Of a DNA stretch of 64,000 bases, positions 50,841-56,188 are shown piece by piece (positions within the stretch are counted from its first letter, which is position 1; each line of letters begins with the position of its first letter). The translations under genes were made by a program, and so were the position numbers. The notes below the pieces were generated by a model that did no database searches, was not told the DNA's origin, and saw nothing but the letters and a program-made list of their open reading frames with translations. Source of the stretch: Alphaproteobacteria bacterium (lineage in GTDB: Bacteria > Pseudomonadota > Alphaproteobacteria > Micavibrionales > Micavibrionaceae); contig JAEUKN010000001.1 of the NCBI GenBank assembly GCA_016794305.1, positions 1-64,000 on the forward strand, read 5' to 3'.

Positions 50841-51695
50841 TTAAATTCCTTTTTGTGATTTGAACGACGCCTGATAATCCTCCGCCCCACCGGGGGGAGT
50901 TTCCACCACAATACGGATTGGATCACGTAAATCAAGTGCGGTAATGTCACGATCAATCAAATGATCATTTTTTTGGGCGTTTTCCAATCTTTCTAACGCA
51001 CTCATCACATCGTCTTCGGGTAATTTTATGCTCACACCGTTTGAAAGATAGAGATCCCATCGCCGGTTCCCCACCCATTTGGCCGAGTCAACGCGCGATT
51101 TGATCAACGGATAGGTCGCAAGGTTGGATTGCAATTCCGCCACATGCAGCGGCGCCCGGTCCCCCACAATCAATAATAAATTGCGATAGGGAGCGATGGT
51201 GCGTGATTCGAGGATCTTCCCGCTCTCATCCACCACCGCCAATTGGTTGTGACGTTGCCACAGGGCAATGGGCGTGCGTTCGGTTAAGCCGATATACACC
51301 GTATCGGGATAATGCCGCACGATTTTTGCGCTTTTGACCCATGATAATTGCTCAAGCCGTTCCTGCATCGCCTTCAGATCAAGCGATAAAATAGAGTCCC
51401 CGCGCGTGATGTGCACAGCGTCTTTCACTTCCCCGCGCGGGCAATGGACCCGCCCCTCAATCAACAGGTTTTCAACGCGGAACCCGTGATTTTGAAACGT
51501 AGTTTCGATTTTTTGCGCCATATCATGCGACACTCCCGCCCACCAAGAGGTGCGCAGCGTATAAAAAATCACCGCCATTAGGGTGAGAATGGCGAAGAGA
51601 GAGAGCCCAACCCGCCGCAGCCAAAAGCTTATCCGCGCTTTTTGCCCGGCGCGACGATTTAAAATACTGGTACGGGTGGTCCCATAATTGGCCAT
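50841..51695 (-). CDS. ftsQ: Cell division protein FtsQ
   Basis: 284 residues: cytoplasmic tail, one transmembrane helix (~27-49), POTRA domain (~72-140: FRVENLLIEGRVHCPRGEV ... LEQLSWVKSAKIVRHYPDT in part), and the FtsQ beta domain. It scaffolds the divisome with FtsB and FtsL. Followed by ftsA. Upstream, where ddl is common, there are 181 non-coding bases and a DotI-like gene. Confidence 0.93.
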   Translation of the reverse strand: MANYGTTRTSILNRRAGQKARISFWLRRVGLSLFAILTLMAVIFYTLRTSWWAGVSHDMAQKIETTFQNHGFRVENLLIEGRVHCPRGEVKDAVHITRGDSILSLDLKAMQERLEQLSWVKSAKIVRHYPDTVYIGLTERTPIALWQRHNQLAVVDESGKILESRTIAPYRNLLLIVGDRAPLHVAELQSNLATYPLIKSRVDSAKWVGNRRWDLYLSNGVSIKLPEDDVMSALERLENAQKNDHLIDRDITALDLRDPIRIVVETPPGGAEDYQASFKSQKGI

Positions 51696-51876: not shown

Positions 51877-52779
51877 TTACTTATCTGTCGGAGTCGCCAA
51901 CCATTGATTAATCGCGACCCCGTTTGAGCTCTCTAACTTCGGCACCCGCACAATCACCAGCTTGACCAACAGATTATCACCGCGGACGGAGGATCCGGAC
52001 TGATATTTTATGGTTAGAGGAACGTCCACAATCCATTGATAAACGCCACGATCCACCCCTTCGGAAATGAGAATCGGCGCGCTGGACGGTGTAGCGGAGA
52101 CAACCTGCTGGCTGGCCTCCACCATTTCAATAATCCGTGAACGGTCGAGCGCATTGGTAAAAGTCGCCCATCCGGTGCGGGTAAAGTTACGCGAGGATTC
52201 CTGTAACCGTCGTTTATAGTCATTAAAACCGAATGTCATCACTTCGGTTGCGGCTTGCGCACTCCATGACATCAGGGCGGGGTTACTGAGGTTAGGGTCA
52301 CTCAAGGGAACGGTGGGGATTAAGCGGCCATCTTCGGTGGTTGCGAAATAGCGATTTTCCGGCTGGTGGACTTCAATAATCATATACATGGCCACGATCA
52401 GACCGAGGATGATCACAGCCTCAATAATCGCGATGCGCAATAAACTGCGATAACCATCGCGGTAAAACTCATTCCGGACGATGACCGATCCAACGCTTTT
52501 GAGCATCTCCAACTCAGCTTCATCCGCTTCGGGGGGAAGGTTTGGTGGGAGTATGGGGGGAGTTTTGCTCTTAGAGGTAACCTTGGCAGCAGCTTTAGGT
52601 GGTGTGGCGGCGACCTTGTTTTCCGGGGGTGATGCCGGTGCCGCTATGGTTGACGGGGGCTTTTGCGCGGGGCGAATATTGCGCGGATTTGGGCGTTGTG
52701 CTGCGCCACCCACCCCATCCCCGGCGGGAGGGACTGTGGAACCTGAGCGAGGCGGATTTGAAGGGGGTTGATCATTCAT
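51877..52779 (-). CDS. DotI/IcmL-like type IVB secretion protein
   Basis: 300 residues: a Pro/Ala-rich cytoplasmic tail (~1-85), one transmembrane helix (~114-136) and a VirB8-like periplasmic domain. Signatures of DotI/IcmL (TraM of IncI plasmids) are strong: RNEFYRDGYRSLLRIAI before the helix, RYFATTEDGRLIPTVPLSDPN after it, and VRVPKLESSNGVAINQWLA at the end. In Legionella, DotI is an inner-membrane part of the Dot/Icm machine. No other Dot/Icm gene is in the window. It lies between gmk and ftsQ on the same strand. Function here is unknown. Confidence 0.85.
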   Translation of the reverse strand: MNDQPPSNPPRSGSTVPPAGDGVGGAAQRPNPRNIRPAQKPPSTIAAPASPPENKVAATPPKAAAKVTSKSKTPPILPPNLPPEADEAELEMLKSVGSVIVRNEFYRDGYRSLLRIAIIEAVIILGLIVAMYMIIEVHQPENRYFATTEDGRLIPTVPLSDPNLSNPALMSWSAQAATEVMTFGFNDYKRRLQESSRNFTRTGWATFTNALDRSRIIEMVEASQQVVSATPSSAPILISEGVDRGVYQWIVDVPLTIKYQSGSSVRGDNLLVKLVIVRVPKLESSNGVAINQWLATPTDK

Positions 52780-52860: not shown

Positions 52861-53493
52861 TTATTCTTCCATCAAAGCCCTTACGAAATCAGGCAGTTCA
52901 GTCAAGCGCCGACGTTTGCAGCGTTCGGCTTCTAGAATTGAGGCAGCCTGAGCAATTGATTTTTCCAGATCACGGTTAATAATAATATAATCATATTCAG
53001 AATAATGTGATATTTCATCGGAAGCTTTTTTCATGCGCTCCTTGATCACATCTTCGTGATCTTGTTGACGCGCACGCAGCCGCCGCTCCAACTCTTCCTT
53101 ACCGGGGGGGAGAATGAACACCGTTACCAAATCATTCACTAATTTTTGTTTGAGTTGCTGCGTACCCTGCCAGTCAATATCGAAAATAATATCTTGGCTA
53201 TTGGCGAGGGCCTCTTCAACCGGGGCCAGCGGCGTGCCGTAATAATGCCCAAATACTTTGGCATATTCCAACAACATATGGGATTCAACCATATGATCAA
53301 ATTCAGCCTTGGTAATAAAAATATAATCCTTACCGTGAACCTCACCGGGGCGCGGCGGGCGCGTGGTGACGGAGACGGAGATTTTAAGTTGGGGGTCACG
53401 TTCCAATAGTGATCGCGTAATAGTGGTTTTCCCCGCACCTGAAGGCGAAGATAAAATAAACAATAATCCACGGCGAACAATTGGCATCAACAT
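52861..53493 (-). CDS. gmk: Guanylate kinase
   Basis: 210-residue P-loop kinase converting GMP to GDP. P-loop SSPSGAGKTTI (~16), GMP-binding SVTTRPPRPGEVHGKDYIF, EYAKVFGHYYGTP, IDWQGTQQLK and RLRARQQDHEDVI. Slightly different starts (M1 or M3) are possible. Placed between murB and a DotI-like gene; gmk is not a usual member of the division cluster in alphaproteobacteria. Confidence 0.96.
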   Translation of the reverse strand: MLMPIVRRGLLFILSSPSGAGKTTITRSLLERDPQLKISVSVTTRPPRPGEVHGKDYIFITKAEFDHMVESHMLLEYAKVFGHYYGTPLAPVEEALANSQDIIFDIDWQGTQQLKQKLVNDLVTVFILPPGKEELERRLRARQQDHEDVIKERMKKASDEISHYSEYDYIIINRDLEKSIAQAASILEAERCKRRRLTELPDFVRALMEE

Positions 53494-53592: not shown

Positions 53593-53618
53593 CAGAACCT
53601 GTACATGATCACGCTGCG
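53593..53618. repeat. Solo family A repeat end over the murB stop codon
   Basis: AGAACCTGTACATGATCACG continuing to CTGCGGC matches the end of family A copy 2 (GCCGCAGCGAGATCATGAAC..., read on the other strand) with two changes. On the murB strand it encodes the final Ala codons and the TGA stop (53609-53611). Confidence 0.7.
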
Positions 53619-54565
53619 GCAGATTTCCCAATACGGGCGATTTCCCAATGAAGATCATAGGAAAAACGGTCCCGCACGCGGCGGCGGATTTCTTCGCCCA
53701 AGGCCTCCAGATCGGCTGCTGTGGCAGTGCCGGTATTGATCATAAAATTGGCGTGTTGTTCAGACATTTGTGCCCCACCCATGGTGAGACCGCGCCCACC
53801 CACGGCGTCAATCAATTGCCAGGCCTTGGTGGCGGGATCGAGCCCGACTTCTTCCAACGCCTGCGCATCTGGGTTTTTAAAGGTAGAGCCGCCGGTTTGC
53901 GCCCTGATTGGCTGGCTTGCGGAGCGTTTGGTGCGAATTTCATTCATGCGGGCGATGATATCTTCCCTCTTGCCCGGTCTGGCCTGAAGTGCCGCGCCGA
54001 CTGCGATCCAACCAGAGGGAATTTCGGAGTGGCGATAGGCCATTTTAAGCCCGTCCGCGGTCAGGGAATGAAGGTTTCCCGCGCGGTCCACAAAATCTGC
54101 GCGCACAAGACAATCTTTCAATTCACCGCCATAGGCCCCGGCGTTAAGCGCCAAAGCCCCGCCGATGGATCCGGGAATGCCGCATAAAAACTCTAACCCT
54201 GCGAGGTTATAGGCGGCGGCGGCCTCTGCCACATTTACATCCAACGCGGCGGCCCCCACATAAAGCACATGATCATCAATCGGGGCGATCCCCGCAAACT
54301 CACGGCCTAGGCGAATCACCACCCCGTCCACCCCGCCATCGCGAATGATGGAATTGGACAATACGCCCAAAATTGATAAGGGTTTGTGCGCGGAATATTG
54401 CGCCAGAAAGGATTGCAAATCCTTTAAATGTAATGGTTTGAACAAAATTTCAGCATGACCGCCGGTGCGAAACCACCCGACCTGCCCCAATGGTGCGTGA
54501 ACCGTGTAACGTCCCTCAACAACTGGCAGATCATCGGGCGGTGCAATCGTGTGAGTCATGAACAT
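53609..54565 (-). CDS. murB: UDP-N-acetylenolpyruvoylglucosamine reductase
   Basis: 318-residue FAD enzyme reducing enolpyruvyl-UDP-GlcNAc to UDP-MurNAc. FAD domain: WFRTGGHAEILFKP, VLSNSIIRDGGVDGVVI, GIPGSIGGALALNAGAYGGE. Substrate domain: RHSEIPSGWI, GGSTFKNPDAQ, and SEQHANFMINTGTATA with catalytic residues. AAAGG precedes the ATG. Follows murC by 60 bases. The last residues (AAA-stop) fall in a solo repeat end. Confidence 0.97.
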   Translation of the reverse strand: MFMTHTIAPPDDLPVVEGRYTVHAPLGQVGWFRTGGHAEILFKPLHLKDLQSFLAQYSAHKPLSILGVLSNSIIRDGGVDGVVIRLGREFAGIAPIDDHVLYVGAAALDVNVAEAAAAYNLAGLEFLCGIPGSIGGALALNAGAYGGELKDCLVRADFVDRAGNLHSLTADGLKMAYRHSEIPSGWIAVGAALQARPGKREDIIARMNEIRTKRSASQPIRAQTGGSTFKNPDAQALEEVGLDPATKAWQLIDAVGGRGLTMGGAQMSEQHANFMINTGTATAADLEALGEEIRRRVRDRFSYDLHWEIARIGKSAAA

Positions 54566-54609: not shown

Positions 54610-54628
54610 AATCATGAGCAGATTTTTA
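54610..54628. repeat. Degenerate family A repeat end at the murC stop codon
   Basis: ATCATGAGCAGATTTTTA compares with ATCATGAACAGGTTCTTA of the family, four changes in 18 bases. On the murC strand the outer TAA is the stop codon (54626-54628). Confidence 0.45.
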
Positions 54629-56188
54629 AGCAGAAAGTTTCTGCTCTCCCATGTCCTCCAATTGCTGCGGCAAGGCTTGAGCCCAATAGGTGATATTTCC
54701 GGCCCCCAAGCATATCACAATATCCCCGGCTTGCGCCAGTTTTGAAATCATATCCGCGAGATGATCGGGGTGATCCAGCATTTCCACATGTTTGTGGCCG
54801 TGGGATTTAATGCCCGCGACCAGGCTTTGTTGATCAATGCCGGCAATGGCTTCCTCTCCTGCAGCATACACATCCGCCACAATCACGCAATCGGCATCAT
54901 CAAAACAGGTGCAGAATTCTTCGAACAAATCGCGCAGCCGCGTATAACGGTGCGGTTGAACCACGGCAATGATTTTGCCGCCGTTAGAGGCACCAGCCAG
55001 TGGGATATTGCTCAAAACTGGGGGGGGGAATGGGGAAGCAAAAGGGGAGGCAAATGGGGAGCTAGTTGCACTCTCATCAGGGCCGCCTAGATTAGGGCCG
55101 CTTAGGGCTTGTCGCCCGGCCTTGAGCACAGCGGCAATTTCCACCGGGTGATGGCCGTAATCATCCACCACCAAAATGCCATTGGTCATGCCCGTACGGG
55201 TAAAGCGGCGCTTAACCCCGCTAAAATTGCCTAAGGCCGTGCGAATACAGGATTCATCAATATTTAACCGCACCGCGACCGCAATGGCGGCACAGGCATT
55301 TTGGATATTATGCGCACCCATCATCGGCAGGAAGAGATTGCGGATAATCTGCGGGTCCTGCTCATCATTTTGTCGTGCAATCACCACATCGAAATGCGAG
55401 CCAAGAGAAGAGGCGCGGATATTTTCCGCCCGCACATCGGATTGTTTGTTAAAACCATAGGTGATGAGGGTGCGGTTTTGAATCTCGGGGATCAGGCTCT
55501 GAACAACGGGATGATCGAGGCACAGCACCCCGCACCCGTAAAACGGAATCTGTTCAACATAACGCAAATACGCCGCGCGAACCTCTTGAAATGATCCGTA
55601 ATGGTCCATATGTTCGGGATCAATATTGGTCACAATGGCGATGGTTGCGGGCAGTCGGGTAAAGGATCCGTCACTCTCATCCGCTTCAACCACCATCCAT
55701 TCGCCCTTGCCCAAGCGCGTATTGGTGCCATAGGAATTGACAATGCCGCCGTTAATCACTGTGGGATCAAGCTTTGCCGCCTCTAACACCGCACCCACCA
55801 ACGATGTGGTGGTGGTTTTGCCATGCGTCCCCGCAATCGCCACCGCCCATTTTAAACGCATGAGTTCGGCCAGCATTTCGGCCCGGCTGACGATGGGGAT
55901 ACGTTGGGCGCGCGCCGCGATGAGTTCGGGATTACCGGCAGGAATGGCCGAAGACACCACAACGGCGCCGGGATATTTGCCATCAAGGGTGAATAAATTT
56001 TGCGCGTCATGACCGTGAAACACGCGCACACCGTGAGATTTCAAACGCACCGTGTTATAATTTTCCGCTGCGTCGCTCCCTTGCACTTTATATCCCAAAA
56101 CGGCGAGGGCTTCGGCGATACCGCTCATACCAATGCCGCCAATGCCAATAAAATGAATCGGACCAATTTCTGGGGGAATATGGTGCAT
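54626..56188 (-). CDS. murC: UDP-N-acetylmuramate-L-alanine ligase
   Basis: 520-residue Mur ligase adding L-Ala to UDP-MurNAc. Rossmann start [16 protein letters not shown]-loop [43 protein letters not shown] and [10 protein letters not shown]. An insertion of about 40 residues rich in Ser/Pro/Gly (containing [11 protein letters not shown]) separates the last two motifs, at the start of the C-terminal domain. That is unusual, though probably a surface loop. First gene of the minus-strand run murC-murB-gmk-dotI-ftsQ-ftsA. Divergent from the glycosyltransferase. Confidence 0.96.

What the first reader, a model, noticed from the sequence alone, without database searches (positions are those of the whole stretch)
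51877..52779. DotI/IcmL homologue embedded in the cell-wall/division cluster
Seen: an ORF with the full DotI/IcmL layout (cytoplasmic tail, single helix, VirB8-like domain, the VRVPKLES..NGVAI ending) lies between gmk and ftsQ, same strand. Known: DotI is an inner-membrane component of Dot/Icm type IVB secretion and of IncI conjugation. Inference: either Dot/Icm genes are scattered in this genome, as in some intracellular or host-associated lineages, or a DotI-like protein has been adopted for envelope or division work.
Basis: partly seen in the sequence, partly recalled or inferred. Interest (0 to 1): 0.72.

Follow-up and report, generated by a model that had tools for sequence, protein, structure and literature searches.

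The report
Scattered DotI gene of Dot/Icm machine
The gene is a genuine DotI, an inner-membrane part of a Legionella-type protein-injection machine whose genes are spread over this genome but sit together in its relatives, the Micavibrio group that includes predators of other bacteria; its place among cell-division genes is peculiar to this one genome, while the machine itself is an untested candidate tool for attacking prey.

Summary
Window 51877-52779, minus strand, encodes a 300-residue DotI/IcmL (Pfam E 2e-59; NCBIfam equivalog above cut-off; predicted model on crystal DotI, Z 22). The genome belongs to the Micavibrio group (Micavibrionales). DotA (3 copies), B, C, D, F, G, H, I (2 copies plus a secreted IcmL-like protein), L, N, O, a TraQ/DotE-like protein and four IcmX-like proteins lie on eight contigs. 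In 50 of 53 relatives' genomes with both genes, DotI lies beside DotH, typically in Legionella's icmL-K-E-G-C-D-J-B order, so the scattering is derived. The second alternative (division or envelope work) is not supported: gmk-dotI is shared by the genus, but murB and ftsQ/ftsA neighbours are not. No PF03432 relaxase was found, which favours protein delivery over conjugation. Such systems were mentioned for seven marine Micavibrionales (PMC9418006), whereas the genome paper of the predator M. aeruginosavorus found no type IV system (PMC3189940). DotI itself is a new member of a known kind. Whether the near-universal machine injects effectors into bacterial prey is open; no experiment bears on it yet.

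The parts
51877..52779 (-). dotI/icmL: 300 aa, cytoplasmic Pro-rich tail 1-86, long helix 88-137 containing the single membrane span, VirB8-like periplasmic domain about 161-300
52861..53493 (-). gmk, guanylate kinase, directly upstream of dotI; the pair gmk-dotI is shared by same-genus genomes
50841..51695 (-). ftsQ, downstream neighbour of dotI only in this genome
49568..50956 (-). ftsA, downstream of ftsQ; on other contigs than dotI in same-genus genomes
53609..54565 (-). murB, upstream of gmk only in this genome; on other contigs than dotI in same-genus genomes
54626..56188 (-). murC, upstream of murB

Best explanation
The gene encodes DotI, the VirB8-type inner-membrane subunit of a chromosomal type IVB (Dot/Icm-like) secretion system that is ancestral to Micavibrionales. 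In this genome the ancestral gene run (gmk-dotI-dotI2-dotH-dotG-dotF-dotE/P-dotN-dotO) has been broken up, and its gmk-dotI piece now lies between murB and ftsQ without functional meaning for division. Working model: DotI, probably with its duplicate, forms an inner-membrane assembly under the DotC/D/F/G/H core; DotB and DotO supply energy; DotL and DotN recruit protein substrates; DotA and IcmX-like proteins form the central channel. Shown here: the identities of the genes, their conservation and their ancestral linkage. Inferred from Legionella: how the parts work together. Inferred only from lineage and from the P. putida precedent: that proteins are delivered into bacterial prey.
For: Family membership and fold of DotI. 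Other components in the same genome: DotH, G, F on C77, DotD, C, B on C62, DotE/TraQ-like, DotN, DotO on C79, three DotA on C22, DotL/TrbC-type coupling ATPase on C58, second DotI on C50, IcmX-like proteins on C78. A DotI-type match in 56 and any IcmL-type match in 57 of 58 genomes; DotH in 53 of 58; the two within 3 kb in 50 of 53. The ancestral run and the closed-up place it has left in this genome. No PF03432 relaxase; DotN present.
Against: No expression, localisation or phenotype data. DotF and DotE assignments rest on weak profile matches in relatives plus position; DotO by homology to the gene in DotO position, not by a profile over cut-off. DotM, IcmS/W/Q/T and DotU/IcmF were not searched for. 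About 0.23 Mb of the genome was not held locally. Other relaxase families were not searched.
Confidence: 0.87

Rival explanations
1. DotI has been recruited to cell-division or envelope work and is kept beside ftsQ for that reason.
For: Same strand and contiguous with murC, murB, ftsQ, ftsA in this genome.
Against: The neighbourhood is private to this genome: ftsA and murB are on other contigs than dotI in every same-genus genome where found and absent from the fetched flanks of all 69 related loci. DotI lies beside DotH in 50 of 53 genomes and the conserved periplasmic surface is that of DotI.
Confidence: 0.03
2. The system is a conjugation apparatus of IncI type (or a remnant of one), and DotI is TraM.
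For: IncI-type components are homologous: TraQ-like and TrbC-like matches, TraM structure; plasmid DotI relatives exist in Alphaproteobacteria.
Against: No PF03432 relaxase in this genome and none over cut-off in 25 of 29 genomes searched; DotN present over its equivalog cut-off; plasmid DotI proteins reach only 37% identity; conserved over the whole order.
Confidence: 0.07
3. The machine delivers effectors into eukaryotic hosts (for example protists) rather than into bacteria.
For: This is what Dot/Icm systems of Legionella and Coxiella do, and a survey read T4SS of this type as a sign of host association (PMC9418006).
Against: The cultured species is an obligate predator of bacteria (PMC3189940), and a T4BSS that kills bacteria is known (PMC9519443). 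Nothing in this genome was found that decides the target.
Confidence: 0.3
4. The murB-gmk-dotI-ftsQ order is an assembly error of a fragmented metagenome genome.
For: 143 contigs; the order is not seen in any relative.
Against: The gmk-dotI join itself is shared by the genus; the place where the cluster sits in a relative is closed up here; two other genomes also have dotI away from dotH; two separate false joins about 1.8 kb apart would be needed.
Confidence: 0.1

Closest known systems
Legionella pneumophila DotI/IcmL in the Dot/Icm T4BSS (PDB 3WZ4, 3WZ5; PMC4454188)
   Same: Sequence family, single-span layout, periplasmic fold (Z 22.3, 38% identity); same partner genes and, in relatives, the same gene order
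   Different: Longer Pro-rich tail; no DotJ found beside it but a full second DotI; genes dispersed in this genome; DotA and IcmX-like genes multiplied
Coxiella burnetii Dot/Icm
   Same: Duplicated DotI in place of DotJ (PMC4454188)
   Different: Intracellular pathogen; not compared by sequence here
IncI R64 TraM and Alphaproteobacterial plasmid T4BSS
   Same: Homologous DotI protein
   Different: Plasmid-borne; at most 37% identity; no PF03432 relaxase in this genome; DotN present
Pseudomonas putida IsoF kib T4BSS (PMC9519443)
   Same: T4BSS in a free-living bacterium; killing of Gram-negative bacteria is the function proposed here
   Different: Recently acquired genomic island with an effector-immunity pair; here an order-wide chromosomal system with no effector identified
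T4SS of this type counted in seven marine Micavibrionales (PMC9418006)
   Same: Same kind of system in the same order
   Different: A count in a survey there; inventory, ancestral linkage, near-universality and dispersal are added here

Membership tests
DotI/IcmL | Profile match over the curated cut-off | tested here: met
   PF11393 200 bits against 27.7; NF038072 196 against 175
DotI/IcmL | Cytoplasmic tail, single membrane span, periplasmic domain with the DotI (VirB8-like) fold | tested here: met
   One hydrophobic stretch; Z 22.3, rmsd 1.1 over 136 residues to 3wz5_C
DotI/IcmL | Position beside dotH/icmK in the ancestral gene run | tested here: met
   Not in this genome, but in 50 of 53 genomes with both genes
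Type IVB (Dot/Icm) secretion system | Outer-membrane and core subunits DotC, DotD, DotH, DotG, DotF in the same genome | tested here: met
   DotH PF12293; DotC PF16932 267 bits; DotD NF033882 116 bits, below its cut-off of 140, with the DotD of G031 over the Pfam cut-off; DotG TrbI domain; DotF only by position and weak similarity
Type IVB (Dot/Icm) secretion system | ATPases DotB and DotO | tested here: met
   DotB best family TIGR02524, 405 bits, below the equivalog cut-off of 463; DotO by 69% identity to the gene in DotO position of G033, no profile over cut-off
Type IVB (Dot/Icm) secretion system | DotA | tested here: met
   TIGR04346 over cut-off, three tandem genes on C22
Type IVB (Dot/Icm) secretion system | Coupling complex: DotL and DotN | tested here: met
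   TrbC-type T4CP 376 bits (below its equivalog cut-off of 800) and PF12696 over cut-off; DotN NF038221 101.7 against 100
Type IVB (Dot/Icm) secretion system | DotM, IcmS, IcmW, IcmQ, IcmT, DotU/IcmF | not tested
   No searches made
Type IVB (Dot/Icm) secretion system | IcmX, partner of DotA | tested here: inconclusive
   Family model matches 9ngy_AP1 (DotA-IcmX protochannel) with Z 10.8, next 5.9; no sequence match
Type IVB (Dot/Icm) secretion system | Contact-dependent translocation of substrates | not testable with these tools
   Needs experiments
IncI-type conjugation system | Relaxase of the MOBP type (PF03432) | tested here: not met
   No match in this genome; other relaxase families not searched
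Division/envelope protein by gene neighbourhood | Conserved linkage of dotI with murB and ftsQ/ftsA | tested here: not met
   Other contigs in all same-genus genomes where found; absent from the flanks of 69 loci

The most novel reading that the evidence does not exclude
Micavibrionales, a lineage that includes epibiotic predators of bacteria, carry an ancestral, near-universal Dot/Icm-type system, with multiplied DotA and IcmX-like channel genes in one family, that delivers effectors into bacterial prey and is part of how they feed; the published genome analysis of the cultured predator had concluded that no type IV system was present.
Probability: 0.45. Interest if true: 0.8.

Novelty: new member of a known kind. 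Interest (0 to 1): 0.5.

Why it matters
How epibiotic predators such as Micavibrio draw nutrients out of attached prey is not settled. A largely complete T4BSS shared by nearly the whole order, and not recognised in the published genome analysis of the cultured predator (PMC3189940), is a concrete and testable candidate. It would add a predator lineage to the few cases in which a T4BSS acts on bacteria (PMC9519443). For genome reading in general, it shows that a secretion gene next to ftsQ need not have a division role, and that a dispersed system is easily missed by finders that look for gene clusters.

Tried and rejected
Division or envelope role: rejected on synteny. Recent plasmid origin: plasmid relatives reach only 37% identity, against 39-75% among aligned relatives inside the order. 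PF10412 in six-frame search gave no match over cut-off, yet the 775-residue protein at its best place is over cut-off when scored whole; the six-frame result alone would wrongly have suggested that there is no coupling protein. The 475-residue protein at G031 2419069-2420496, first guessed to be DotC, is a TcpQ-domain protein; DotC is at C62. The protein at C55:141500-142879 is not detectably related to the 404-residue protein beside DotO in G033, although its 131-residue neighbour is related to the one there. Joint multiplication of DotA and IcmX as one event is not upheld: some genomes with one DotA have 4-5 IcmX-like matches. A sequence search of the IcmX-like family against solved structures found nothing. 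The promoter and terminator scan did not help: terminators at shuffle level, promoters 14 against 7.4 expected. Papers on Micavibrio and Dot/Icm beyond the two cited were not found in the open library.

Full report
Observation. The ORF at 51877-52779 is on the minus strand (300 codons, ATG) between gmk and ftsQ, with murC and murB upstream and ftsA downstream, all minus. Pfam gives one family, T4BSS_DotI_IcmL, E 2.2e-59 over 179 of 180 positions. NCBIfam gives the DotI equivalog above its cut-off and a weak match to DotJ in the N-terminal part. In an alignment with 43 relatives 30 columns are invariant. A profile from it finds crystal DotI at 1.5e-38 and R64 TraM at 2e-13 among solved structures. 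The AlphaFold2 model (mean pLDDT 78, periplasmic domain mostly above 90) lies on DotI 3wz5_C with Z 22.3, rmsd 1.1 over 136 residues, then TraM (20.3), an IcmL-like Legionella protein (20.0), then VirB8 proteins at about 15.

Organism. Loci that encode close relatives of this protein carry record titles of Micavibrio or unclassified Alphaproteobacteria; those sharing gmk-dotI include Micavibrio sp. UBA5572 and UBA6212. The assembly has 1.94 Mb in 143 contigs and is 96% complete. The order name Micavibrionales is my reading of these titles. G033 agrees in position and nearly in size with CP066681, a metagenome chromosome titled M. aeruginosavorus. G031, a single contig of 2,458,610 bases, is by its length probably the cultured strain EPB; this is from memory and not verified.

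The rest of the machine. In this genome I found DotH (C77:83157-84413), DotG (81548-83170) and a DotF-like protein (80115-81530) in a row; DotD, DotC and DotB in a row on C62:2871-5495; a TraQ/DotE-like protein, a second small membrane protein, DotN and DotO on C79:57-4945; three tandem DotA on C22; a TrbC/DotL-type coupling ATPase at C58:17530-19857; a second DotI at C50:25163-25840; an IcmL-like protein that begins like a signal peptide and lacks the membrane-span part of the profile at C55:105475-106233; and four IcmX-like proteins on C78. The IcmX assignment rests on fold: the best PDB match of the family model is the DotA-IcmX protochannel entry 9ngy, chain AP1, Z 10.8 over 231 residues, next row 5.9. 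As the family is helical this is suggestive, not proof, and that chain AP1 is IcmX was inferred from its length (417 residues).

Ancestral order. Over 69 fetched loci the neighbours of DotI fall into the same few families: DotI-DotH-DotG-DotF-DotE onwards, with the IcmX-like genes divergent upstream in most of the family and gmk upstream in the genus. G033 has DotI, H, G, F, E-like, N, O in a row, which follows Legionella's icmL-K-E-G-C-D-J-B order (Legionella order from memory). An IcmL-type match occurs in 57 of 58 genomes; in one of these (G024) it is only the weak secreted type. DotH occurs in 53 of 58. Where both were found they lie within 3 kb in 50 of 53; the exceptions are this genome, G009 and G036. 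Among 142 genomes drawn from the class only 8 have DotH, two of them in this family, so the system is characteristic of this order rather than of the class.

How the window arrangement arose. In G003, same genus, the run gmk-dotI-dotH-dotG-dotF-dotE/P-dotN-dotO lies between genes whose counterparts in this genome, C77:108533-109279 and C77:109475-110314, are next to each other; its members are found here at C55, C77:80-84 kb and C79. murB and ftsA lie on contigs other than dotI's in every same-genus genome where they were found. The second DotI copy groups with the tandem second copies of relatives, support 99/98, so it too once stood beside dotI. Dispersal is therefore derived, gmk and dotI stayed together as a pair, and the ftsQ neighbourhood carries no functional message. 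Without reads an assembly error at the two outer joins cannot be excluded.

Function. DotI is the T4BSS counterpart of VirB8; in Legionella it forms an inner-membrane complex with DotJ, and Coxiella has duplicated DotI instead of DotJ (PMC4454188). Two DotI copies here fit the Coxiella pattern. DotA and IcmX form the central pentameric protochannel in Legionella (PMC12857230). Lack of PF03432 relaxase and presence of DotN, part of the Legionella coupling complex, favour protein delivery over conjugation. The target is not shown. M. [quoted passage not shown] A survey counts seven marine Micavibrionales among genomes with this T4SS type (PMC9418006). A P. putida T4BSS kills Gram-negative bacteria on contact (PMC9519443). 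Delivery into prey is therefore a reasonable but untested proposal.

Novelty. The DotI gene is a new member of a known kind, and T4BSS in Micavibrionales has been mentioned before. Added here are a largely complete inventory, near-universal presence in the order, the contrast with the published genome analysis of the cultured predator, and the dispersal of the genes in this genome.

Noticed in passing
G000:C78:9768-15687; in relatives upstream of dotI, for example L118:114-5622: A family of secreted, helical, Cys-containing proteins in 3-5 tandem copies, without Pfam family, whose predicted fold best matches the Legionella DotA-IcmX protochannel entry: probably multiplied IcmX.
   Followed up: partly
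G000:C22:28527-37982: Three tandem DotA/TraY genes; the family sampled has about three, other families of the order one. Why a channel protein should be multiplied is unexplained.
   Followed up: partly
G000:C55:105475-106233 (L008:1475-2233): An IcmL-like protein that starts like a signal peptide instead of the DotI membrane span; distant relatives at separate places in most genomes of the order. Possibly a soluble periplasmic DotI relative.
   Followed up: partly
G000:C50:25163-25840: Second DotI, orthologous to tandem second copies in the genus, as in Coxiella, which has two DotI and no DotJ.
   Followed up: yes
G000:C62:5492-7255: Cys-rich zinc-finger-like protein with C-terminal membrane spans directly after dotB; function and conservation unknown.
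   Followed up: no
G000:C72:8271-10443: A thioredoxin-fold-like secreted protein and its neighbour, whose homologues lie close to dotD in G031; possibly accessory to the system.
   Followed up: no
G000:C55:141069-141464: 131-residue protein related (38% over 84) to one beside the DotO gene in G033: another possible dispersed piece on the window's contig.
   Followed up: partly
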